The translations under genes were made by a program, and so were the position numbers. This document shows, one piece after another, positions 6,346 through 36,956 of a DNA stretch of 38,435 bases. Every line of letters begins with the position of its first letter. Position 1 is the first letter of the stretch. The notes beneath the pieces are model-generated. The model had not been told where the DNA came from. It saw only the letters and a program-made list of their open reading frames with translations, and did not search any database. The stretch is from Alphaproteobacteria bacterium (lineage in GTDB: Bacteria; Pseudomonadota; Alphaproteobacteria; UBA11073): the NCBI GenBank assembly GCA_013289145.1, contig JABDAM010000001.1, positions 68,466-106,900 on the forward strand. Reading direction: 5' to 3'.

Positions 6346-6713
6346 CCGAGCTGAAAGCCTAATTTCGTTCCTAAGCTCACAATTTCTTCTTTGGTTTTGC
6401 CAGATACATAAGCGTTTCCCTTCAGCATATATTGGGCAGTATCAAATTTACGGCAGGCATGATAATTTGGATATGTTCCTCCTGAACTCATGCTCTCAGC
6501 TTCCGCGAGAAAAGCGCGCCCAATATCGTGCTGGAGTTTAATAAATTGGTTTCTATGCGGAAATCCTATTTTCTGGCCCATATTTTCCAATATAGCCTTT
6601 CCTGCCAAGGCAGTAAACCAACCGTCCCAAGCCGTTTCGAGACGTCCTTTAGTAAGGGACTCTCTGCCTCGGGCACAACCTCTTTCAAATTGTTGCATTG
6701 GTGTTTCATCCAT
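6342..6713 (-). CDS. Hypothetical protein, 123 aa
   Basis: Not recognised. Mostly helical and charged, with no signal peptide or membrane segment. Features include an N-terminal FERGCARGRESL stretch, WFTALAGKAI, and a C-terminal YMLKGNAYVSGKTKEEIVSLGTKLGF. The reading frame is open with an ATG start and only a weak upstream GGATAAGG. It is visibly AT-richer than its neighbours and convergent with gmhA, the two stops sharing a TTAA. It could be a recently acquired or fast-evolving gene. Confidence 0.5.
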   Translation of the reverse strand: MDETPMQQFERGCARGRESLTKGRLETAWDGWFTALAGKAILENMGQKIGFPHRNQFIKLQHDIGRAFLAEAESMSSGGTYPNYHACRKFDTAQYMLKGNAYVSGKTKEEIVSLGTKLGFQLG

Positions 6714-11590: not shown

Positions 11591-13486
11591 ATGCTCCAAA
11601 AAATCGGCAAACGCACGAAAACCATCCTCGGCACCTTGTTGTTCGTGCCCATCATCGGCTCGTTCCTGATTTGGGGCATCAGCGATATGGTAAAAGCCGT
11701 CGGGGTTTCACGTTATGCCGCGACGGTGGGCAATACGACAATTTCAACGCAGGAATTCAGTAATGCCTACCGGCGCCAACTCGACGGCATGCGCCGTCAG
11801 GGTATGAAAATCGACGCTGATATGGCGCGCCAGCTGGGCATCGGGCAGCAGATTTTGCGCAACCTGATCGAACGCCAATTGCTGTTACAGGCCGCGCATG
11901 ATTACGGCATCGTCGTTGGTGACCAAACCGTGGCGGCGGAAATCCAAAAAGAAAAATCATTTTACGACGACAACGGCAAATTCAGCCGTGATAAATTCAA
12001 AAACCTGCTCGCCAATGCGGGCGTGGGCGAACAGGAATTCGTTTCCGGCCTGCGCGGCGATATGTCCATTCGCTTGCTGCTGAATGCTTTGCAGGCCTCA
12101 GCCCAGCCGCCTGCCAACCTGCCCCGCGCGCTTTATACCCTACAGAAATCCATTTATGCGGCGGATGTTTACACGCTGCCACATGACGCCATGGGCGTCG
12201 CTCGCGCGCCGACGGAGGCTGAGTTAAAAACCTTTTACGATGCGCACAAAGATCATTATCAACGTCCCGAAATGCGCCGGGGTGTAGTAGCGGTTCTATC
12301 GCTGAAAGACTGGGGAGAAAATGCCAAGCCCAGCGATCAAGATTTAAAAAATATCTATGAAGCGCACAAAGCAGAGTTTACCATCCCCGAAGAACGCAGT
12401 GTGCAATTCGTCGCTCTGCCTGATGAAGCCAAAGCGCACCAAGTCGCCGAGGCCGCGCGCGGCGGCATTAAATTGGCCGACGCCGCTGCAAAAATAAACG
12501 GTGCGCCCGTAGCATTAAAAACCATGGAAGATGTAAAGCCCGGCACCTTGCCCGCCGACCTGGACAAAACAATTTTTAAACTCCCGCGCGGCGAAACCAG
12601 CGAACCCGTGAACACCGCGCTTGGCTGGTATGTGATGCAAATTACAAATATCCGGCCCAGCGCAACCGTGCCCATGGCGCGGATTAAGGATAAATTGATT
12701 GAAAGCTGGCGCCAGGACCGCAGCAGCGAAGATTTACCAAAGCTATTGAATAAAATTGACGACGGCATCGCGGGCGGGTCATCATTGGAAGAAATTGCGA
12801 AAACTTATCATCTGCAATTGCGGCAATTGCCGTTGGCGGATCAACAAGGCCATGGTTTGGATGCAGCCACGCTGACTGATAAAAATACCAAAGAAATTTT
12901 GGCGGCGGAATTTAAACAGAACCAGGGCGAAGTCGGCAACGTATTCGAAACCTCCGGCGGTGATTATGCGCTATTACGTGTGGATGAGGTCAAACCCACA
13001 GCTGTGCCGCCACTGGCCGCTATTCATGATCAAATCGTGACCGATTGGAAAAAATTCAATCAACGGCAATTGGCGGAGGATGCCGCGCGCAAATTAGCGA
13101 ACGATTGGCGCAAGGGCGGCAACGTGGCCGATGAAGCCAAAAAAATCGGCGCAACCATGGCGGCGCGCAATGATCTGAGCCGCGACCAGGCGCAAAAAAC
13201 GCAAAAACCTGCAACTGGCATCGACCGCGCAATTTTGCAGGCTGATGGCGCGGGTACAGTTGTGACTGCTGCGGACGCGAACAATGAATATGTCGCGAAA
13301 ATCCGCGCGATCGCGCCGCCGCCAGCGGCCAGCGTGACCGATGCGGTTCTCGGCGATATGCGCAACACCACATCCCAATGGGTGAAAAATGATTACACGC
13401 AATTGTTTTTAAACGCGCTGGAAAAACGTTATTCGGTTGAGATTAACGACAAGACGGTGAAACAAGTAGAGAATTCATCCAATTAA
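11591..13486 (+). CDS. ppiD: PpiD-like SurA N-terminal domain / parvulin chaperone
   Basis: Inner-membrane-anchored periplasmic folding factor of the PpiD/SurA_N_3 class. Of 631 aa, residues about 15-35 form one membrane anchor (ILGTLLFVPIIGSFLIWGI); then come a SurA-like N-terminal domain (TISTQEFSNAYRRQLD, LIERQLLLQAAHDYGI), a parvulin-like segment around residues 250-360 (ALGWYVMQITNI), and a long alpha-rich C-terminus. The parvulin segment is poorly conserved, so chaperone rather than isomerase activity is likely. TTGACC at 11541 may be its -35. Assignment to the family is firm; orthology to E. coli PpiD is inferred from architecture. Confidence 0.85.
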   Translation: MLQKIGKRTKTILGTLLFVPIIGSFLIWGISDMVKAVGVSRYAATVGNTTISTQEFSNAYRRQLDGMRRQGMKIDADMARQLGIGQQILRNLIERQLLLQAAHDYGIVVGDQTVAAEIQKEKSFYDDNGKFSRDKFKNLLANAGVGEQEFVSGLRGDMSIRLLLNALQASAQPPANLPRALYTLQKSIYAADVYTLPHDAMGVARAPTEAELKTFYDAHKDHYQRPEMRRGVVAVLSLKDWGENAKPSDQDLKNIYEAHKAEFTIPEERSVQFVALPDEAKAHQVAEAARGGIKLADAAAKINGAPVALKTMEDVKPGTLPADLDKTIFKLPRGETSEPVNTALGWYVMQITNIRPSATVPMARIKDKLIESWRQDRSSEDLPKLLNKIDDGIAGGSSLEEIAKTYHLQLRQLPLADQQGHGLDAATLTDKNTKEILAAEFKQNQGEVGNVFETSGGDYALLRVDEVKPTAVPPLAAIHDQIVTDWKKFNQRQLAEDAARKLANDWRKGGNVADEAKKIGATMAARNDLSRDQAQKTQKPATGIDRAILQADGAGTVVTAADANNEYVAKIRAIAPPPAASVTDAVLGDMRNTTSQWVKNDYTQLFLNALEKRYSVEINDKTVKQVENSSN

Positions 13487-17389: not shown

Positions 17390-17454
17390 AAAAAACCTCC
17401 ATCAAGTCGTGCTAATATGATCGGCGAGGCATGTGAAGTAAAGCCGTCTTATGG

Positions 17455-20094
17455 CTATCCTCTCAGCGCGTTCCTTACCGCTTCAATCGCTGCTTTGGCC
17501 TGGCCGCCGTCCGGGCCGCCTGCCTGGGCGAAATCAGGCTTGCCGCCGCCGCCCTGCCCGCCCATGGCCGCCGCCGCGGCTTTCACCAGCGCGACCGCAT
17601 CGACTTTTCCGGCCAAGTTTTGCGCCGCGACGATGGCGGAGCCTTTGCCCTCGCTCACGCCGATCAAGGCCACCACGCCAGCATCCAATTGGGTGCGCAG
17701 TTTTTCTGCAATCGTACGCAAATCATTCGCCGAAACATCCGGCAAAACCTGTCCTAGAAATTTCAAACCGCCGACAGTTTCCGCATTTGCGACATCCAAT
17801 GTCGATAGCAACCATTTCGTGCGCAATTCCGCAATTTCTTTTTCCAGCCGCTTTTTGTCTTCCAGTAAATCATGCACGCGGCCAGGCACATTCACCGCTG
17901 CCGTTTTCAGTTCCGCCGCGGCCGCGTTCAATAACTGTTCTTGTTCAGCAAAATATTCCAATGCCGCCTGGCCGGTTACCGCCTCAATCCGCCGGACACC
18001 CGCTGCTACGGCACCCTCGCCAACAACTTTGAACAGTCCGATGTCTCCCGTTGCGCGCACATGCGTCCCGCCACACAATTCAACCGAATAATCTTTCTTC
18101 GCGCCGGCATCGCGTCCGCCCATGCTGACGACGCGCACTTCATCGCCATATTTCTCACCGAACAGCGCCATCGCGCCTTCCTCAATCGCGGCGTCGGGCG
18201 TCATCAGGCGCGTCGTGACCGGCGTATTCGCGCGGATGCATTCATTCACCACGCGTTCAACATCCTGCAATTCATCTTTTGCAATGGCTTTAGGATGCGA
18301 AATATCAAACCGCAGCCGATCCGGGGCAACCAATGAGCCCTTTTGCGCCACATGTTCGCCCAACTTTCCACGCAAAGCTTCATGCAACAAATGCGTTGCC
18401 GAATGGTGCGAACGAATAGCGGAGCGCCGCACGCCATCCACCTGCATCATCACGCTCTCACCAACTTTAATCGTGCCCTCATTAATATGCGCGTGATGCA
18501 CAAAAACATTCCCCAATTTCTTTTGGGTATCTGTAATGGCGACACGCAACTTGCCCGCCGTCATTTCGCCGCTGTCGCCGACCTGGCCGCCGCTTTCGCC
18601 ATAAAATGGCGTTTGATTGACCAATACATGAAAATCCGCCGGCCCAGAGACAGCCTCAACATTCCTGCCATCACGCACGAGCGCTGTAATAACACCCTCA
18701 GCATGTTCTGTATTATAGCCTAAAAATTCCGTGCCATTGATTTTTTCTTTCAGATCGAACCACAGCGTTTCCGTCGCCGCTTCACCTGATCCCGCCCAAG
18801 CCTTACGCGCCATGTCACGCTGACGCTGCATCGCGATATCAAATCCTTGTTCATCCACGCCAATATTTTTGTTTTTCAGCGCATCAATCGTTAGATCGAG
18901 CGGGAAACCATAAGTATCATAAAGCGTAAAAGCCGTTTCGCCCGCCAATGTATCACCGGATTTGAGTTTCGCCGTTTCTTCTTCAAGAATTTTTAAACCG
19001 CGCGTGAGGGTCTGGCCGAACCGCTGCTCTTCCGTTTTCAACGTCTCCGTAATCAGCGCCTCGGCCCGGTTCAATTCCGGATAGGCCGCGCCCATCAGAT
19101 TTTGCAGCGCCGGAAACAGACGGTACATCAACGGATCGCGTGCGCCGATCATTTGCACATGCCGCATCGCGCGGCGCATGATGCGGCGCAGGACGTAACC
19201 GCGGCCTTCATTACTCGGCAAAACGCCGTCGGCGATCAGGAACGCACTCGCGCGCAAATGGTCGGCGATGACGCGGTGGGAAATTTTGTGCGGACCATCC
19301 GGATCGGAATGTGTTGCGTGGGCGGATGCTTCGATTAACGCACGCATCAGATCGATGTCATAGTTATCATGCTTGCCTTGCAGAATTGCAGAAACGCGTT
19401 CGAGTCCCATGCCGGTATCGACGGATGGTTTTGGCAATTTCGTTTGCGTACCGTCCGGATGTTTTTCGAACTGCATAAAAACATTGTTCCAGATTTCGAT
19501 AAAACGGTCGCCGTCCTGATCCGCGCTGCCGGGCAGGCCGCCGGGAATTTTATCGCCGTGATCGAAAAAGATTTCGCTGCACGGACCGCACGGACCGGTA
19601 TCACCCATCTGCCAAAAGTTATCACTCGTTGCGATGCGAATAATTTTGCTCTCCGGCAGACCGGCGATTTTTTTCCAATATCCCGCGGCTTCGTCGTCAT
19701 CGTGATAAACTGTAACGCACAGGCGCTCCGCGGACAGGCCGAAATCCTTTGTGATCAAATCCCAGGCGAATTTAATCGCGTCTTCCTTAAAATAATCACC
19801 GAAAGAAAAATTGCCGAGCATTTCGAAAAACGTATGATGCCGCGCGGTGTGCCCCACGTTGTCCAGGTCATTATGCTTGCCGCCCGCGCGGACGCATTTT
19901 TGCGCGGTGGTCGCGCGGGTATAGGGGCGCACCTCGCGGCCGGTAAAAACATCCTTAAATTGCACCATGCCGGAGTTGGTGAACATGAGCGTCGGATCGT
20001 TACGCGGCACGAGCGGCGACGACGGCACGATTTCATGCCCGTTTTGGGCGAAAAAGTTCAGAAATGTGGAGCGGATGTCGGAAACGGAAGCCAT
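17455..20094 (-). CDS. alaS: Alanyl-tRNA synthetase
   Basis: Charges tRNA-Ala and edits mischarged Ser/Gly. The catalytic N-terminus has [15 protein letters not shown] and RYVL-type class II motifs; the editing domain has [13 protein letters not shown] and [13 protein letters not shown]; the C-terminal C-Ala domain ends in a Gly-rich stretch ([17 protein letters not shown]). ATG at 20094 yields 879 aa starting [14 protein letters not shown], the normal beginning; a TTG at 20124 sits at the foot of the recA terminator and is rejected. No Shine-Dalgarno is seen; CATATA/TATACA lies 5-7 nt before the ATG, so it may be leaderless. Confidence 0.97.
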
Positions 20095-26325: not shown

Positions 26326-26533
26326 TTTAAATTTAGGGATTAAAGAGATTTTAAAATGAAACAAACCGGCACGCCATATCTGGCACACAAAATATATGGC
26401 GGCCTTGAAACTTTCTGGACGGCCCTACATCTGCCTTTTTTAATGATACGCCTGTGCTTTCCATTTCCTGAAGAGCGCGGCAAACGGTTCCCGGAAGAAA
26501 AGGATTTTGCGCCACATCTAAAACAAGATATAT

Positions 26534-26570
26534 CGCCCCAATAAAATTGCGATAATATCTGAAAAAAATT
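26534..26570 (+). promoter_or_regulatory. Shared upstream motif, copy A
   Basis: TAAAATTGC, one variable base, then ATAATATC recurs at 27325-27342 with 17 of 18 positions identical and weaker similarity on both sides. Copy A starts about 126 bp before the ECF sigma ATG. It may be an operator or promoter element. Confidence 0.45.
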
Positions 26571-27306: not shown

Positions 27307-27316
27307 ATCCGCCCGT

Positions 27317-27350
27317 CGCCTCAGTAAAATTGCCATAATATCCAAGAAAA
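27317..27350 (+). promoter_or_regulatory. Shared upstream motif, copy B
   Basis: Second copy of the TAAAATTGC-ATAATATC motif, starting about 125 bp before the ATG at 27450, almost the same distance as copy A from its gene. It suggests common control of the sigma gene and the SPFH pair. Confidence 0.45.
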
Positions 27351-27449
27351 ATTTTATTGATATCGATCTGCCGTTATGCTAATTATAGCCTTCAAAGTGA
27401 CTGTATTATCAATCCCACTCTCAAACTCAACATTATAAGGAGATCACCG

Positions 27450-29319: not shown

Positions 29320-30465
29320 ATGCCGCAGCTCAACTGGAAAAGCCTAATTCTAAAACTGGTCGTTGGGATCGTATTAATCGGCTTATTCCTTGGCGCTAAT
29401 ATGCTTTATTATGCAGCGACTTTATTCAATCCCGATAAAGCAGCGGCAGGTGATGCACGGTCGGAATATTACATTGCTCACCCTGACCTACATCACCCCC
29501 TGAAAGAAAAGCGGCAATTAGCCGTTAAGCTATTGCAACATTCTGCCGTGCAGAATTTTGATTTATCTGAATTTTCGCTTGGCCTCTTATATATGGATCC
29601 GGAAGAAAACCGGGATATTATCGAGCAAAATCCAACCGAGGCGGCACGCTGGTTTCTAAAATACTCCGAACAGAATTTTGACAACGACGGCAGTAAAAAT
29701 ATTGATCCTTGGGATATTTTCGATCTCAGCATGCGGCGCGGCTCCCATAACATAAACGACCACACAAGACTTGCTTCCATTGCCGGAATTCTGGGACAGA
29801 TGTTTTATAACGGCATCGGGGTTAAACAAGATTACGCCCAAGCCTTTAAATGGTATAAACGTGCCTATGATTTAGGCACGGGGCACGCCGAAGGCATGCT
29901 CGGCGCGCTGTATTTATGGGGCAACGGCACCGCCAAAGATGCGCAAAAAGGTCTGGCCATGCTGCATAAATGGGCGGACCAAGGCGATTCTTTATCGGAA
30001 TATGAAATAGGACGCGCCTATTTATACGGCACGGGCGTACCGCAAGATGCAAAAGAGGCCGTAAAATGGTTTCAAAAAGGCCTCAACGAAGATTCCGCTT
30101 TTTCCGAAGTCACGATGGGCAGATTATATCAAGTCGGTATGGGCGTTGAAAAAGACAATGCCGCAGCCGTCAAATTATTTCAAAAAGCAGCGGACGGGGG
30201 CAATGCCAAAGGCGCCTATTTTCTCGCGCAGGCTTATTTGAATGGCGACGGCATCGCCATGGATAAGCGGGAAGGCGTCAAATGGCTCTACCGCGCCGCG
30301 CGTGGCGGCTATGATGTTGCCCGCTATGAATTGGGCTTAATCTGTGATCAAGGGCTGCACGGCTTCGCACCGGATAAAAAAGAGGCTTTCAAATGGTATT
30401 CCCTGGCGGCTGACCAAGGAAATCAGGATGCCATTGCCAAAATGGCGCTATTCAAGCAGCCATGA
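29320..30465 (+). CDS. Sel1-repeat membrane-anchored protein
   Basis: The 381-aa protein has an N-terminal membrane anchor (about residues 10-32) and then a series of Sel1-like (TPR-type) repeats from residue about 150: GQMFYNGIGVKQDYAQAFKW, YLWGNGTAKDAQKGLAML, GRAYLYGTGVPQDAKEAVKW, GRLYQVGMGVEKDNAAAVKL, AQAYLNGDGIAMDKREGVKW and a final unit. Such proteins are protein-interaction scaffolds, often periplasmic or membrane-facing; the partner is unknown. Shine-Dalgarno TAGGA overlaps the preceding stop. It overlaps the next gene by 4 nt. Confidence 0.88.
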   Translation: MPQLNWKSLILKLVVGIVLIGLFLGANMLYYAATLFNPDKAAAGDARSEYYIAHPDLHHPLKEKRQLAVKLLQHSAVQNFDLSEFSLGLLYMDPEENRDIIEQNPTEAARWFLKYSEQNFDNDGSKNIDPWDIFDLSMRRGSHNINDHTRLASIAGILGQMFYNGIGVKQDYAQAFKWYKRAYDLGTGHAEGMLGALYLWGNGTAKDAQKGLAMLHKWADQGDSLSEYEIGRAYLYGTGVPQDAKEAVKWFQKGLNEDSAFSEVTMGRLYQVGMGVEKDNAAAVKLFQKAADGGNAKGAYFLAQAYLNGDGIAMDKREGVKWLYRAARGGYDVARYELGLICDQGLHGFAPDKKEAFKWYSLAADQGNQDAIAKMALFKQP

Positions 30466-30989
30466 ATTATGCGGATATCCTGACCCCGGCGCAGATTTTT
30501 GGATTAGCAGCCTTTGGTTTGGACGCCACCGCATTCGCTCTTAAAAACGACCGCGCGCAATTATCGTTGCGGTCTGTCGGCTGCCTGACCTGGGTCGCGC
30601 ATTATTACTTGCTGGGTAAAATGGTGCCCGCGTTTTTTCTCTGCCTGGATTTTATTCGGTATTTTTCCGCCAATTGGGTGCGCGCGCGGCCTGCCCTCAC
30701 CTGGCCCGCGATTATTTTTTTCGCCGCGAGTTATATTACTGCTGGCCTGCTGCTGCAAAATGCTGCGATTGACTTTTTGCCCACCGTCACCGCCGTAGCA
30801 GCCTGTTACTGCACCTATGCTCTGCGCGGCATTCCGATGCGCGTGGGATTTTTCTTTATTATGTCCAGCTGGATGACGTATAACTTTATGGTACATTCCA
30901 TCGGCGGCGTGCTGAACGACGCGGTCGTGGTTTTAATCAACGCCACCACCATTTACCGCATGATCCGCGACGAGCGAAAAACCGCATGA
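30462..30989 (+). CDS. YgjV-like inner-membrane protein
   Basis: The 175-aa protein is strongly hydrophobic with five or six membrane segments. The pattern IFGLAAFGLDATAFALKNDRAQL, CLTWVAHYYLLGK, and the C-terminal INATTIYRMIRDER fits the YgjV family of small inner-membrane proteins with no established function. It overlaps the Sel1 gene (ATGA) and the pip gene by 4 nt each, so the three are probably translated from one mRNA. Confidence 0.72.
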   Translation: MNYADILTPAQIFGLAAFGLDATAFALKNDRAQLSLRSVGCLTWVAHYYLLGKMVPAFFLCLDFIRYFSANWVRARPALTWPAIIFFAASYITAGLLLQNAAIDFLPTVTAVAACYCTYALRGIPMRVGFFFIMSSWMTYNFMVHSIGGVLNDAVVVLINATTIYRMIRDERKTA

Positions 30990-31939
30990 ACCTTTATCCT
31001 GAAATCGAACCCTATCACACCGAATATCTGCCCGTCGGCGACGGGCATGAATTATACCTGGAACAATGCGGCCGCCAGCATGGCGTGCCGATCCTCGTCG
31101 TGCACGGCGGGCCGGGCAGCGGTTGCACGCCTTTGATGCGGCGCTTTTTTGACCCCGAATATTACCGCATCATCTTATTCGACCAGCGCGGCGCGAACCG
31201 CTCGCGCCCTCTTGCCTCGCTGCACGAAAACACGCCCGACAACCTTGTCACCGACATGGAAAAAATCCGCGCGCATTTGGGGATTGATCAATGGCATGTC
31301 TTCGGCGGTTCATGGGGTTCAACATTATCGTTGCTCTACGGCCAAGCGCATCCAGACCGCTGCCTCTCCCTCACCGTGCGCGGCATATTTTTGATGCAGC
31401 CCTCCGAGCTCGATTGGCTCTTCCACGACGCGCAAAATATTTTTCCGGAGGAATGGGAATTATTCATTACCCACCTGTCCGAGGCGCAGCGCAAAAACCC
31501 GCTGCGCGCCTATTACGAATTGCTGCGCTCAACCGACGTTAACACCGTCCGCGCCGCCACGCGCGCGTGGAACCGTTGGGAAAACGCCTGTTCTTATCTG
31601 CTGCCCAATCCCGAAGCGATTTCCGGCCCGCTCGACGACGCGCCCGGCATTTCCCGCGCGGCGATTGAGTGTCATTATTTTTTAAACTGCCTCTTCACCC
31701 CGCACGACCGCATTTTGCAAAACGTCGGCGCATTGCGCGGCATCCCCGCCAGCATCATCCAGGGCCGCTATGACATAGTCTGCCCCATCGCCAATGCCTA
31801 TGCCTTGCACCAAGCCTGGCCCGAAGCCGACTTCATCATCGTCCCCAACAGCGGCCACAGCGCCAACGATCCCGCGATGCGCGTGGCGTTGCTGGGGGCA
31901 GTGGAGCGCCTGAAATGTCATCCCGGACAAAGTGCGTAA
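30986..31939 (+). CDS. pip: Prolyl aminopeptidase (proline iminopeptidase)
   Basis: Removes N-terminal proline from peptides; alpha/beta-hydrolase of family S33, cytosolic. The 317 residues hold the oxyanion motif HGGPGSGC, FDQRGANRS, nucleophile GGSWGSTL, the acid in QGRYDIVCP and the catalytic His in NSGHSA. The N-terminus LYPEIEPYHTEYL is typical. The last 102 bp (31838-31939) are duplicated at 32403-32504, on the far side of an AT-rich insert, with differences mostly at silent positions. The final residues CHPGQ are encoded by the edge of a dispersed GTCATCCCGGG repeat. Confidence 0.94.
   Translation: MNLYPEIEPYHTEYLPVGDGHELYLEQCGRQHGVPILVVHGGPGSGCTPLMRRFFDPEYYRIILFDQRGANRSRPLASLHENTPDNLVTDMEKIRAHLGIDQWHVFGGSWGSTLSLLYGQAHPDRCLSLTVRGIFLMQPSELDWLFHDAQNIFPEEWELFITHLSEAQRKNPLRAYYELLRSTDVNTVRAATRAWNRWENACSYLLPNPEAISGPLDDAPGISRAAIECHYFLNCLFTPHDRILQNVGALRGIPASIIQGRYDIVCPIANAYALHQAWPEADFIIVPNSGHSANDPAMRVALLGAVERLKCHPGQSA
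31838..31939 (+). repeat. Direct repeat of the pip 3' end, proximal copy
   Basis: 102 bp, gap-free alignment with 32403-32504, 89 of 102 positions identical by hand count. This copy is the in-frame end of pip. Confidence 0.9.
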
Positions 31940-31957
31940 ACGGCGTCAATCTAGTTT

Positions 31958-32329
31958 TTAAAATTCAGATGTCAAGCTTTTGGGGCCTTGATGAGCAGTG
32001 TGGATAGCACCGCCCTTATTGCGTTCCATAACGCGTTTATTTACAAGGACATTGTAATTTATAATCTGTGTCAAAACCAAAGGGTTAGTTTCCCCTTCTT
32101 CATGCAATCTCTTTTTAACGTTAGTGATAAAGCGCACACTTTTTGCCAAAGCTGCAGAAGGATCAATTTGAAAAATATCCTCATATTCCTTTGCCAAATC
32201 TTTCATATCATCCGTTGGTAGACCTGTTAGACCCGGAATAATAGTACCAGTTTGAGCCCATCTCGTGATTGGATAAGCGGATGTTTCAGAGTTGCCATCC
32301 AAATTTTCAATATCACTTAAAACCATCAT
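31958..32329 (-). CDS. Hypothetical protein, 123 aa, on an insert
   Basis: Not recognised. Soluble, mixed charge, no signal peptide; contains PITRWAQTGTIIPGLTGLP, a helical middle (KEYEDIFQIDPSAALAKSV) and NYNVLVNKRVMERNKGG. GGAG lies 6 nt before the ATG, and a good promoter (TTGCAA, 17 nt, TATATT) stands upstream, so expression is likely. It is AT-richer than pip and pgk and is the sole gene on the segment bounded by two copies of the pip 3' end. It runs opposite to pip. Confidence 0.6.
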   Translation of the reverse strand: MMVLSDIENLDGNSETSAYPITRWAQTGTIIPGLTGLPTDDMKDLAKEYEDIFQIDPSAALAKSVRFITNVKKRLHEEGETNPLVLTQIINYNVLVNKRVMERNKGGAIHTAHQGPKSLTSEF

Positions 32330-32353
32330 TTTTATCTCCGCATCAATAGTCCA

Positions 32354-32382
32354 AATATACTATTTACATCAGCTTATTGCAA
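32354..32382 (-). promoter_or_regulatory. Promoter of the insert gene
   Basis: On the minus strand TTGCAA (32382-32377), 17 nt, TATATT (32359-32354). A start near 32347 would give a leader of about 18 nt carrying GGAG before the ATG at 32329. Confidence 0.65.
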
Positions 32383-32402
32383 ATAAATTTAATACTTGCA
32401 AA

Positions 32403-32504
32403 ATCGTCCCCAACAGCGGCCACAGCGCGAACGATCCCGCGATGCGTGCGGCGTTATTGGCGGCGGTGGAGCGGTTGAAATGTCATCCCGGGCAAGGCAC
32501 GTAA
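32403..32504 (+). pseudogene. Orphan second copy of the pip 3' end
   Basis: Encodes VPNSGHSANDPAMRAALLAA followed by VERLKCHPGQGT and a stop, matching the last 33 codons of pip with four amino-acid changes but thirteen base changes. The excess of silent differences shows that it diverged as a coding sequence before being separated from its gene body. It has no start of its own. Confidence 0.85.
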
Positions 32505-32527
32505 GCGCCGCAGACCCGGGATCCCGT
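32482..32527. repeat. Dispersed GC-rich palindromic repeat, second copy
   Basis: GTCATCCCGGGC, a variable part, then GCGCCGCAGACCCGGGATCC, near-identical to the reverse complement of 20183-20229. It begins inside the orphan pip tail. Confidence 0.8.
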
Positions 32528-32548
32528 GAAGAATAAGAACCGACCGTC

Positions 32549-32614
32549 GGGAGATCCCGGATAGCAGCTGCGCTAAGCGGCAAGCCGCTAAGCTCCGCTA
32601 GCTTCCGGGATGAC
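32549..32614. repeat. Related palindromic repeat before pgk
   Basis: GGAGATCCCGG and CCGGGATGAC flank a self-complementary middle (CTAAGCGGCAAGCCGCTAAG). It resembles the GTCATCCCGGG family but with a different interior. Confidence 0.65.
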
Positions 32615-32634
32615 AATTTGCTAAAACCACCCCC

Positions 32635-33915
32635 ATGAACTTCAAAACCCTAGACGACATCGCCCTCGCCGGCCTCAAGGTCCTCATCCGCGCGGACCTC
32701 GACGTGCCGATCAAATCCGGCGCGGTGCAGGATAAAATCCGCCTGAAACGTTTCGTGCCGACGCTGCAACGCCTATCTGCGGCGAAGGCGAAAACCATCA
32801 TCATCGGCCACCTCGGCCGCCCGAAATCGCGGGATGAAAGCTTTTCCCAGCGTCCCACCGCGACGGTCCTGGCCGTCGAAATGGGCCATGAAATCAAATT
32901 CGTGGACGACTGCGTGGGCGAGAAAGTCCGCGCGGCTGTCGATGCCATGCAACCCGGCGACATTTTGATGCTTGAAAACCTTCGCTTCCACGCCGACGAA
33001 ACCGCCACCGACAAACGTTTCGCGCACGAAGGCAAAAATAGCTGCGATATCGGCACCAGCACCTTTGCCAAAGATCTCGCATCGCTCGCCGATATCTACG
33101 TCAACGACGCCTTCGCCAATTCACACCGCGCCCATGCATCGATGGTGGAATTGCCCTGCCTGCTGCCCTCTTACGCGGGCCCCATCGTGCAGGCCGAAGT
33201 CGAAGCGCTCGAACGCGCCCTGGAAAATCCCACCCGCCCGATGATGGCGATTGTAGGCGGCTCCAAAGTTTCCACCAAACTCGACCTCCTCAACAACATC
33301 GTGCCGCGCGTGAATAAACTCGTCCTGGGCGGCGCCATGGCAAATACGTTTTTGGCCGCCAAAGGCATCAACGTCGGCGCCTCCATGCACGAAGCCGAAA
33401 TGATCGACCAAGCGCGCACCATCATGAAAACCGCCATCGATCACGGCTGCGAAATCATCCTGCCGCAAGACGCCATCCTCGCCGACCGCGTCGCCTCCGA
33501 CGCGCGCATCCGCATGGCGCCGATCACCGACGTGCGCCCGGATGAAATGATTTTGGATGTCGGCCCCACCAGCATCGCTTACCTCTATCAAACCCTCGAA
33601 CACATGAAAACGCTGCTCTGGAACGGCCCGCTCGGCGTATTTGAAATTCTGCCTTTCGACGCAGGCACCATGGCCGTCGCCAAATTCGCCGCGACGAAAA
33701 CCCAGGCCGGACAGCTGGTCACCATCGCCGGCGGCGGCGATACGGCGGCCGCGATGAACATCGCGGGCGTGGCGGACCGCCTCACCTACCTGTCCACCGC
33801 AGGCGGCGCGTTTTTGGAATGGCTGGAGGGTAAAATATTGCCGGGAATTGCGGCACTGACGCCCAGCGGCGCGACGACCGGTAGCGAAAAACTAAAAATC
33901 GTTTCGCGGAGCTAA
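32635..33915 (+). CDS. pgk: Phosphoglycerate kinase
   Basis: Glycolytic enzyme making 3-phosphoglycerate and ATP from 1,3-bisphosphoglycerate and ADP. The 426-aa protein has GHLGRPK, LENLRFH, NDAFANSHRAHAS, VGGSKVSTK, GGAMANTFL, NGPLGVFE and the nucleotide-binding AGGGDTAAA. The N-terminal substrate loop reads RADLDVP where the family usually has RxDxNVP, so the Asn that contacts 3-phosphoglycerate is Asp (residue 23). The slightly longer C-terminus ends in a Ser/Thr-rich tail. A GTG-started membrane protein gene follows after 8 nt. Confidence 0.97.
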   Translation: MNFKTLDDIALAGLKVLIRADLDVPIKSGAVQDKIRLKRFVPTLQRLSAAKAKTIIIGHLGRPKSRDESFSQRPTATVLAVEMGHEIKFVDDCVGEKVRAAVDAMQPGDILMLENLRFHADETATDKRFAHEGKNSCDIGTSTFAKDLASLADIYVNDAFANSHRAHASMVELPCLLPSYAGPIVQAEVEALERALENPTRPMMAIVGGSKVSTKLDLLNNIVPRVNKLVLGGAMANTFLAAKGINVGASMHEAEMIDQARTIMKTAIDHGCEIILPQDAILADRVASDARIRMAPITDVRPDEMILDVGPTSIAYLYQTLEHMKTLLWNGPLGVFEILPFDAGTMAVAKFAATKTQAGQLVTIAGGGDTAAAMNIAGVADRLTYLSTAGGAFLEWLEGKILPGIAALTPSGATTGSEKLKIVSRS

Positions 33916-35463: not shown

Positions 35464-35637
35464 TTAATATCTTGAACCTGGAGGAAACTCCCAAACTTCA
35501 TCTTCAGGATCATACTTTGCTGTAGGCAAAAGTTCGTATCTGTCATTTCCCAATGGTATAGCCTCTGTTGCGCGAATGGTGTCCGTTCCTTCTTCTAGCA
35601 GAACCACATAAATCTCGACAGTCTTTGAGTTACTCAT
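35464..35637 (-). CDS. Shortened second immunity-like protein, 57 aa
   Basis: Paralogue of the 78-aa protein at 35766-36002: both have LLEEGT, AIPLGN, Y-LLPT, YDPEDE and WEF-PGS in the same order. This copy stops right after PPGSRY, losing about 20 C-terminal residues present in the other. A near-perfect Shine-Dalgarno AAGGAGG precedes the ATG, so it is translated. Read one frame over, the sequence past the stop stays open as a charged helical stretch (IKSQIDFAQRDLDRAKSDL), so a frameshift may have created the stop. Likely the cognate immunity of the displaced toxin tail just upstream. Confidence 0.7.
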   Translation of the reverse strand: MSNSKTVEIYVVLLEEGTDTIRATEAIPLGNDRYELLPTAKYDPEDEVWEFPPGSRY

Positions 35638-35654
35638 CTTTTCCTCCTTAATCG

Positions 35655-35762
35655 TTATGGCATTTGATTGGGTTTAAATCCTTTATCACTAACCTGCAAA
35701 AGTTGATGGGTTGCATCGTCTATTACTACATAGTCTTTATCGACTTGATAACGGGTCGCCAT
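35655..35762 (-). pseudogene. Orphan C-terminal remnant of a colicin E5-like toxin
   Basis: A 35-codon frame that starts ATG 3 nt after the first immunity stop and reads ATRYQVDKDYVVIDDATHQL then LQVSDKGF, ending at TAA. It aligns with the last 37 residues of the intact toxin (ATRYEYEGNYVVINDVTHDL then IQVGEPDF), but the DNA has diverged clearly, so it is the tail of a different toxin allele rather than a recent copy. It lacks the helical half with the RGWT motif and should be inactive. Confidence 0.75.
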
Positions 35763-35765
35763 ATA

Positions 35766-36002
35766 TCATTCCACTTTTTCAGTCGCCAAAAGAATGGACA
35801 CCCCCTTATCCGTCTTAGCATGAATACATTTAACCACTGACCCCGGTAAAAATTCCCAAATTTCGTCCTCAGGGTCATAGTTGGGTGTTGGTAATAATTT
35901 ATAGGTGTTATTCCCCAACGGAATAGCTTGTGTCGGGCGAGCGGTTGGAGTCCCCTCTTCTAACAAGTTAAGATAAACTTTTTCAGTTGCTTGATTAGTC
36001 AT
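35766..36002 (-). CDS. Putative immunity protein of the colicin E5-like toxin
   Basis: 78 aa, acidic, cytosolic. Starts 3 nt after the toxin stop, with AGAGG of the Shine-Dalgarno inside the toxin's last codons, so the two are translationally coupled. Contains VYLNLLEEGTPTARPTQAIP, LLPTPNYDPEDEIWEF and LPGSVVKC, a pattern I recall from a widespread family of short acidic proteins. It bears no clear resemblance to the immunity protein of colicin E5 itself. The immunity role is inferred from position, size, charge and the repeated pairing with a toxin tail. Confidence 0.65.
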   Translation of the reverse strand: MTNQATEKVYLNLLEEGTPTARPTQAIPLGNNTYKLLPTPNYDPEDEIWEFLPGSVVKCIHAKTDKGVSILLATEKVE

Positions 36003-36005
36003 TTG

Positions 36006-36932
36006 TTACCTCTCTGGGATTATAGGACGAATAAAATCTGGCTCACCGACTTGAATAAGATCATGTGTGACATCGTTTATCACGACATAGTTACCTTCAT
36101 ATTCATAACGTGTTGCCGTATTTTCTGGTTTCGGATTATTCGGCGCCGGAAATTGTTCGCCATGTTTTATCGTATCCGTAACTTTTTCCTTCGTCCAGCC
36201 GCGTTGCTCCATTTGCCGACCCCATTTCTCCGGTGTTTTATGATCGCCCAATTTCCATGTGTCATACGGCCTTGGGGGCTTTTCTTGCACTGGAGTTTGC
36301 TGTAGCGGTTTTGGCTGGGGTTCATTTTGAGGTTTGGGCAAACTTAGCGGCTGCGCAGTTTGCGGCTCGCTCGCCGGCGACATTTGGTTTTCCAGCCAGT
36401 TCAGGAAAACCTGCGCCGCCTCTTCACCACCTAACAAGCCGATCAAATCAAAATCCGGATAGACCGGATTAATTCTGTCCGGATAAGGATCGGCCTTTTG
36501 CGTGGGGGTCTGCTGATCTTTCGGTTCCCGAATATCCACCATCCAGCACCGGCACCCCTCTTCATCCCCCGGGGCCGGATAGTCCGACATGGAAAACTGC
36601 AAACCATCCCGCGCCGCATGGCTCGGCCGCACGCGCGGATCCTCCATGGTTTGCCAGACATAGGTCGCCTCGGGCGGCTGGTCGGCGACGGCTTGGTTTA
36701 ACGCCTCCATCGTCGCGTCGCCCGGACGCGCCTCGCCCGTCGCGCGCAAACCGCGCGCGGCCTGAAAGTTTTTCAGCGCGGCAAACAAAGGGCGATCGGG
36801 GATGTCATTAATCCCCGCATCCGGATGGGGCGCATAAAAGCCGAGGCGGTTCAGCGCGATTTTCATCACACGCACGTCGGTTTCGGCCACGCGGCTATTG
36901 CTGCCGAACGGCCTGTTCAGTTCGATGTTCAT
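36006..36932 (-). CDS. Polymorphic toxin: PG-binding-like, MuF-like and colicin E5-type tRNase
   Basis: 308 aa. Residues about 18-82 look like a peptidoglycan-binding domain (VRVMKIALNRLGFY, LFAALKNFQAARGL). Residues 91-134 carry the phage MuF/SPP1 gp7-type signature (YVWQTMEDPRVRPSHAARDG then PGDEEGCRCW). A Pro/Gln linker follows (about 135-222). Residues 225-305 match the colicin E5 ribonuclease domain: RQMEQRGWTKEKVTDTIKHG against RGQMPERGWTEDDIKNTVSN, and ATRYEYEGNYVVINDVTHDL against ATVYGSPGKYVVVNDRTGEV. Colicin E5 cuts Tyr, His, Asn and Asp tRNAs in the anticodon. The start is ATG 36932 with AGGA 5 nt upstream. The C-terminal third is visibly AT-richer than the rest. No signal peptide is seen; the delivery route is unknown. 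Confidence 0.75.
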   Translation of the reverse strand: MNIELNRPFGSNSRVAETDVRVMKIALNRLGFYAPHPDAGINDIPDRPLFAALKNFQAARGLRATGEARPGDATMEALNQAVADQPPEATYVWQTMEDPRVRPSHAARDGLQFSMSDYPAPGDEEGCRCWMVDIREPKDQQTPTQKADPYPDRINPVYPDFDLIGLLGGEEAAQVFLNWLENQMSPASEPQTAQPLSLPKPQNEPQPKPLQQTPVQEKPPRPYDTWKLGDHKTPEKWGRQMEQRGWTKEKVTDTIKHGEQFPAPNNPKPENTATRYEYEGNYVVINDVTHDLIQVGEPDFIRPIIPER

Positions 36933-36956
36933 GGAATTCCTGTGGGTTTTAGGCAC

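What the first reader, a model, noticed from the sequence alone, without database searches (positions are those of the whole stretch)
31838..32504. pip 3' end duplicated around a 463-bp AT-rich insert with its own promoter and gene
The last 102 bp of pip recur at 32403-32504 (89/102 identical by hand, mostly silent differences). Between them lies an AT-rich segment with one ORF, a good promoter and a ribosome-binding site. An element that integrates at the 3' end of a gene and supplies a replacement 3' end would leave this pattern; so would recombination with a divergent pip. The insert is too small to carry an integrase.
Basis: seen in the sequence. Interest (0 to 1): 0.65.

Follow-up and report, generated by a model that had tools for sequence, protein, structure and literature searches.

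The report
Orphan gene added beside pip
Between two tightly packed housekeeping genes this bacterium has gained a small AT-rich gene of unknown function, together with a second, slightly different copy of the neighbouring gene's tail, and the same kind of scar turns up at several other places in its genome, which suggests that it repeatedly picks up extra genes by recombination with relatives.

Summary
Confirmed. The last 102 bp of pip (31838-31939) recur at 32403-32504 (89/102 identical; the first 26 bp identical; 8 of 12 changed codons silent). Between them is a 463-bp, 36% GC segment with one 123-aa ORF on the minus strand. The sister genome G001 has pip and pgk 15 bp apart, with no insert: the empty site. 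The protein has no relative in any collection searched. The locus is not unique. In 781 kb of this genome, relics of housekeeping-gene ends also lie at ispG|prfA (a composite relic, prfA start joined to ispG end), nadA|uvrA and truB|rpsO, each beside orphan genes. G001 has one similar locus; two other alphaproteobacteria have none in 200 kb each. The composite relic argues against a simple integrase attachment site. I favour additive recombination with DNA of a diverged relative, for example single-crossover entry of a trimmed, recircularised fragment, a process already seen in E. coli. The insert also begins with a promoter element found upstream of about 18 mostly AT-rich genes in this genus, so the cargo may belong to a lineage-specific regulon. 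An integrase remnant (e14/icd-like) and a metagenome-assembly chimera remain possible. Protein function is unknown; the model rests on one MAG plus one sister.

The parts
30986..31939 (+). pip (prolyl aminopeptidase), intact; its 3' end (31838-31939) is the proximal repeat copy
   Evidence: NCBIfam TIGR01249 1e-107, above cut-off
31838..31945 (+). proximal copy of the direct repeat: pip 3' end plus the first ~28 bp of the palindromic element
31940..32402 (.). AT-rich insert (36% GC), absent from sister genome G001
31958..32329 (-). ORF123, orphan protein-coding gene; predicted largely helical but with low confidence
   Evidence: no hit above noise in Pfam, NCBIfam, PHROGs, PADLOC, PDB, IMG/VR, GTDB contigs, plasmids, phages or 385 genomes of the class; single-sequence AF2 pLDDT 49; ORF-length test
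32354..32382 (-). sigma-70-like promoter of ORF123 (TTGCAA, 17 nt, TATATT)
   Evidence: consensus match only
32377..32402 (-). promoter element TTGCAAGTATTAAATTTATTTGCAAT shared with about 17 other genes of G000/G001, mostly AT-rich; ends at the junction with the distal pip copy
32403..32510 (+). distal copy: displaced pip 3' end (reading frame still open to the stop codon)
32481..32615 (.). full copy of the dispersed palindromic element (>=15 places in G000, none found in G001 with this query)
32635..33915 (+). pgk, the original neighbour of pip (15 bp away in G001)
   Evidence: Pfam PF00162 2.5e-134

Best explanation
An AT-rich orphan gene with its own promoter was ADDED between pip and pgk by recombination with DNA of a diverged relative, not by transposition. 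The donor carried its own pip 3' end (about 13% different, already with the same palindromic element behind it) followed by ORF123. Inferred steps: a fragment starting inside pip's last 110 bp and ending at ORF123's promoter was trimmed and joined end to end; a single crossover in the shared pip tail inserted it. That leaves a whole pip with a recombinant tail, the cargo, then the displaced native tail. Shown: the duplication, the empty site in the sister genome, the divergence pattern, and similar relics at other loci of the genome. Inferred: donor, circle, crossover point. ORF123 is probably expressed from its own regulated promoter as one of a set of lineage-specific accessory genes; what the protein does is not known.
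For: (1) G001 empty site, pip-pgk 15 bp apart. (2) Both copies share the same palindromic-element insertion after codon AAA, which G001 pip lacks, so they descend from one common ancestor later than the split from G001. (3) Polarised with G001, distal-specific changes are 3 silent and 0 replacement; proximal-specific 3 silent and 2 replacement: the distal tail evolved mostly as a working gene end and was displaced late (small numbers). (4) Comparable scars in G000: ispG|prfA with a composite relic prfA-start|ispG-end (29/29 bp ispG core), nadA|uvrA, truB|rpsO; G001 has ispG-prfA 9 bp apart and nadA next to uvrA, without relics. (5) Survey at E<=1e-3: 7 same-strand intergenic gene-end relics in 781 kb of G000, 1 in 198 kb of G001, 0 in 400 kb of two other genomes. 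(6) G001 C17: another gene 3' end duplicated around a 715-bp, 41% GC insert with one opposite-strand ORF. (7) Precedent: in E. coli, trimmed recircularised DNA entering by single crossover duplicated 109-950 bp of a gene end; such duplications were seen in 56 of 60 clones, 14 of them sequenced (PMC3240628). (8) DprA and a ComEC fragment at a contig end are present, compatible with DNA uptake.
Against: No donor sequence was found and no circle can be shown. The 26-bp identical block at the inner border (also 29 bp in ispG) is what a site-specific core would look like, although conserved internal codons predict it too. Not every expanded junction has a relic: of the expanded gaps tested only pip|pgk and ispG|prfA did. 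The genome is a 70%-complete MAG in 60 contigs.
Confidence: 0.5

Rival explanations
1. Remnant or trans-mobilised satellite of an integrase-type element that targets the 3' end of pip and carries a replacement 3' end, as prophage e14 does at icd in E. coli.
For: Anatomy matches: gene regenerated by an element-borne 3' end with mostly silent differences, displaced native end distally, identical core at the inner border. Eight tyrosine-recombinase genes in the genome. e14 duplicates 165 bp of icd with 12 nt changes and 2 conservative replacements (PMC11148124).
Against: No integrase in the 463 bp; none on the contigs of the relic loci of G000. Other relics involve different, unrelated gene ends including 5' ends, and one joins two genes' ends.
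Confidence: 0.25
2. Old tandem duplication inside one lineage (pip tail to ORF123) followed by complementary loss of one cargo copy and one element copy.
For: The prfA|ispG junction reads like a tandem-duplication junction, with a short TTGA match near it.
Against: Needs several independent losses; a long-dead distal copy should have collected replacement changes and none is seen among three.
Confidence: 0.12
3. Metagenome-assembly chimera of two strains with different pip-pgk intervals.
For: The genome is in 60 contigs and about 70% complete; the two pip tails look like alleles of two strains.
Against: The longest exact match between copies is 26 bp, below the final k-mer sizes usually used (own knowledge). 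The prfA relic at another locus has an in-frame stop and the nadA and truB relics are degenerate, so they are not intact strain alleles. A separate genome shows a similar anatomy.
Confidence: 0.1

Closest known systems
Prophage e14 at icd in E. coli (integration into a protein-coding gene with a replacement 3' end)
   Same: Target gene kept whole by a divergent 3' end; displaced native end at the far side; mostly silent differences (PMC11148124).
   Different: 463 bp, no integrase; other relic loci in the genome include 5' ends and a composite relic.
Single-crossover integration of trimmed, recircularised DNA (main product in an assay for homology-facilitated illegitimate recombination, E. coli)
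   Same: Foreign DNA flanked by a partial duplication (109-950 bp) of the end of the homologous gene (PMC3240628).
   Different: Here seen as natural scars of different ages in an uncultured genome; donor about 13% diverged; short homology (102-110 bp).
Minimal mobile elements of Neisseria (cargo exchanged between conserved neighbour genes)
   Same: Different or absent cargo between the same two housekeeping genes in relatives.
   Different: There gene cassettes are exchanged (PMC2649163, citing Saunders and Snyder 2002); here cargo is added and a gene-end relic is left behind.

Membership tests
Integrase-mediated element at a gene 3' end (e14/icd type) | Direct repeat of the gene end, gene regenerated by the incoming copy | tested here: met
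Integrase-mediated element at a gene 3' end (e14/icd type) | Integrase gene in the element | tested here: not met
   Only ORF123 in the insert; no Pfam hit; integrases lie on other contigs
Integrase-mediated element at a gene 3' end (e14/icd type) | Identical core at the crossover | tested here: inconclusive
   26/26 bp at the inner border, P=0.016; codon conservation could also explain it
Trimmed-circle single-crossover integration | Cargo flanked by a partial duplication of one homologous gene end | tested here: met
   same at ispG, nadA, truB, G001 C17
Trimmed-circle single-crossover integration | Joint between the two ends of the donor fragment | tested here: inconclusive
   Clear at C7 (prfA start joined to ispG end); at pip the cargo end meets the pip tail, donor sequence unknown
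Trimmed-circle single-crossover integration | Circular intermediate and RecA-dependent crossover | not testable with these tools
   needs experiment
Minimal mobile element | Same conserved neighbours with different cargo in relatives | tested here: met
   G001 empty; further expanded junctions; only two genomes of the genus held
Minimal mobile element | Cargo replaced by double homologous exchange in both neighbours, no scar | tested here: not met
   gene-tail scar present

The most novel reading that the evidence does not exclude
This genus builds up a lineage-specific regulon of orphan genes by repeated additive capture: single AT-rich genes, many with the same activator-type promoter element just upstream, are inserted beside housekeeping genes, each event leaving a gene-end relic that records the order of arrival.
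Probability: 0.2. Interest if true: 0.72.

Novelty: new variant of a known kind. Interest (0 to 1): 0.45.

Why it matters
How orphan genes settle into compact genomes is usually guessed from their presence or absence. Gene-end relics give a readable physical record: which side was homologous, how diverged the donor was, and in what order cargo arrived. If the shared promoter element is real, it would also show how newly arrived orphan genes come under common control, and offers a handle on what they do.

Tried and rejected
Longer decayed pip paralogue: rejected, homology stops at 32403. Insert as an ancestral gene: disfavoured by the empty site in G001. Transposition of the palindromic element as the cause: it is shared by both copies, so it predates the event; no Y1 transposase was found in the genome. 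Known protein family for ORF123: nothing in any search; weak plasmid, phage and class hits (E 0.05-0.9; 0.002-0.006 per genome) are noise-level. Structure: single-sequence model too poor for a fold search. RNA families: none. Pgk start relic at the cargo end: none beyond noise. Relics at the neighbouring expanded junctions pgk|pcm, nadC|nadA, ssb|nadC: none beyond noise. A literature search for natural cases of the trimmed-circle scar returned nothing.

Full report
WHAT IS THERE. The window is bases 68466-106900 of contig C1 of G000, a 1.42-Mb, 60-contig, about 70%-complete genome; only one other genome of its genus (G001) is held, and all others searched are related at class level. pip (30986-31939, TIGR01249 1e-107) is followed by a 463-bp AT-rich stretch, a second copy of the last 102 bp of pip (32403-32504, 89/102 identical), a dispersed palindromic element, and pgk (32635-33915). 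The similarity is ungapped, starts sharply at 31838/32403 and fades at about 31945/32510.

THE PALINDROMIC ELEMENT. Both pip copies run into TGTCATCCCGG, the left end of a ~137-bp element found at 15 or more places in G000 and not in G001 with this query. In G001 pip ends ...ERLKTSGI*; in G000 both copies read ...ERLKCHPGQ.., with the stop codon inside the element. Both copies share this insertion, so they had a common ancestor after the split from G001. Only the distal copy keeps the full element.

WHICH COPY IS NATIVE. With G001 as outgroup, in the pip part the distal copy has 3 private changes, all silent; the proximal copy has 5, two of them replacements; one site is unresolved. The distal tail has therefore evolved as a working gene end until recently. 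This fits two allelic tails from diverged lineages brought side by side, and fits an old in-place duplication poorly. The numbers are small.

THE INSERT. ORF123 (minus strand) is longer than chance (7 of 3000 shuffles), with codon-position GC of 47/37/32%. It has no recognisable relative in Pfam, NCBIfam, PHROGs, PADLOC, PDB, IMG/VR, GTDB contigs, plasmids, phages or 385 genomes of the class. AlphaFold without an alignment gives a low-confidence, mainly helical model.

EMPTY SITE. In G001 pip and pgk are 15 bp apart, with no insert, repeat or palindromic element.

NOT AN ISOLATED CASE. I took stretches of G000 (781 kb), G001 (198 kb) and two other genomes of the class (200 kb each) and searched 35-residue gene ends for same-strand intergenic relics within 6 kb: G000 7, G001 1, others 0. 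Housekeeping cases in G000 besides pip: ispG|prfA, where a relic at C7:46456-46559 joins the prfA start (with a stop codon in it) to the ispG end, 29 bp of which is identical to ispG; nadA|uvrA, with a 63-bp relic of the nadA start; truB|rpsO, with a 64-bp relic of the truB end. G001 has ispG-prfA 9 bp apart and nadA directly beside what reads as the uvrA start. In G001 C17, a gene 3' end (~120 bp) is duplicated around a 715-bp, 41% GC insert with one opposite-strand ORF, much like pip; prophage-like genes follow. The remaining two G000 hits concern accessory genes: a colicin-E5-type toxin gene in this window, with a second orphan tip and immunity copy, and an integrase gene. Many junctions are longer in G000 than in G001 without detectable relics.

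A SHARED PROMOTER ELEMENT. The last 26 bp of the insert, at the junction with the distal pip copy, match several other places in G000. A matrix grown from these hits finds 18 strong sites 46-91 nt upstream of gene starts in G000/G001 (consensus TTGAAAGTAATAAATTTCTTGCATTT); the genes are AT-rich (mean GC 0.449 against 0.525, p = 9e-8). Of ten of these proteins tested against Pfam, one had a hit above its cut-off (ELM1 family); the site before C12:780 precedes a gene that looks like bamD (my reading, not tested), so the set is not purely orphan. Cargo genes at relic loci have the element more often than other genes (5/15 vs 13/880; without ORF123 p = 8e-5). Matrices with shuffled columns give at most 2 upstream sites against 28; the matrix was trained on these data, so this is a lead, not proof. 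For ORF123 the second TTGCAA of the element doubles as the -35 box, 17 nt before TATATT, which suggests an activator or UP-type site.

MECHANISM. Integration at a gene 3' end with a replacement end (e14/icd: 165 bp duplicated, 12 nt changes; PMC11148124) would explain pip alone. It does not explain relics of unrelated 3' and 5' ends or the composite relic. A single crossover with a trimmed, recircularised donor fragment explains pip, and a fragment running from the ispG end through cargo to the prfA start explains C7. In E. coli this product outnumbered true homology-facilitated illegitimate recombination and duplicated 109-950 bp of a gene end (PMC3240628). Unequal recombination between strains would leave the same scar and cannot be told apart here.

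LIMITS. One MAG and one sister; no donor; no reads. The survey covers just over half of G000 and about 14% of G001, with a simple ORF caller. The E. coli precedent used a plasmid delivered by conjugation, so its transfer to this organism is inference.

Noticed in passing
window 32377-32402 (-) and 17 other sites in G000/G001 (e.g. L187:1913, L101:16824): Shared upstream element (TTGAAAGTAATAAATTTCTTG) 46-91 nt before AT-rich, mostly family-less genes; possible lineage-specific regulon.
   Followed up: partly
L110 (G000 C7) 6456-6559: Composite relic: prfA start with an in-frame stop joined to the ispG end, between orphan genes; ispG and prfA are 9 bp apart in G001.
   Followed up: partly
L101 (G000 C1) 17426-17488: Relic of the nadA 5' end, 1.7 kb from nadA, with three orphan ORFs between.
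   Followed up: partly
L117 (G000 C29) 13248-13311: Relic of the truB 3' end in a truB-rpsO interval filled with orphan ORFs.
   Followed up: partly
L187 (G001 C17) 950-1910: B3/4-domain gene with its 3' end duplicated around a 715-bp AT-rich insert with one opposite-strand ORF; prophage-like genes follow.
   Followed up: partly
window 35485-36956 (-): Peptidoglycan-binding + colicin-E5-type RNase toxin gene with a small likely immunity gene, followed by a second orphan toxin tip (35676-35756) and a decayed second immunity copy (35485-35600).
   Followed up: partly
window 32481-32615 and 15+ places in G000: Dispersed ~137-bp palindromic element of two hairpins, TGTCATCCCGG...CCGGGATGACA; it supplies the pip stop codon; no Y1 transposase found in the genome.
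   Followed up: partly
window 29320-30989: Sel1-repeat gene and YgjV-type membrane gene lie between a 103-aa gene and pip; the corresponding genes overlap by 4 bp in G001.
   Followed up: no
L105/L106 (G000 C2) 58761-58990 and 65678-65882: 230-bp, 73% direct repeat including an integrase gene start, spanning 6.9 kb: possible tandem island ends.
   Followed up: no
window 26533-26570 and 27316-27353: 38-bp, 84% repeat upstream of a sigma-factor-like gene and of the following gene: possible shared promoter.
   Followed up: no
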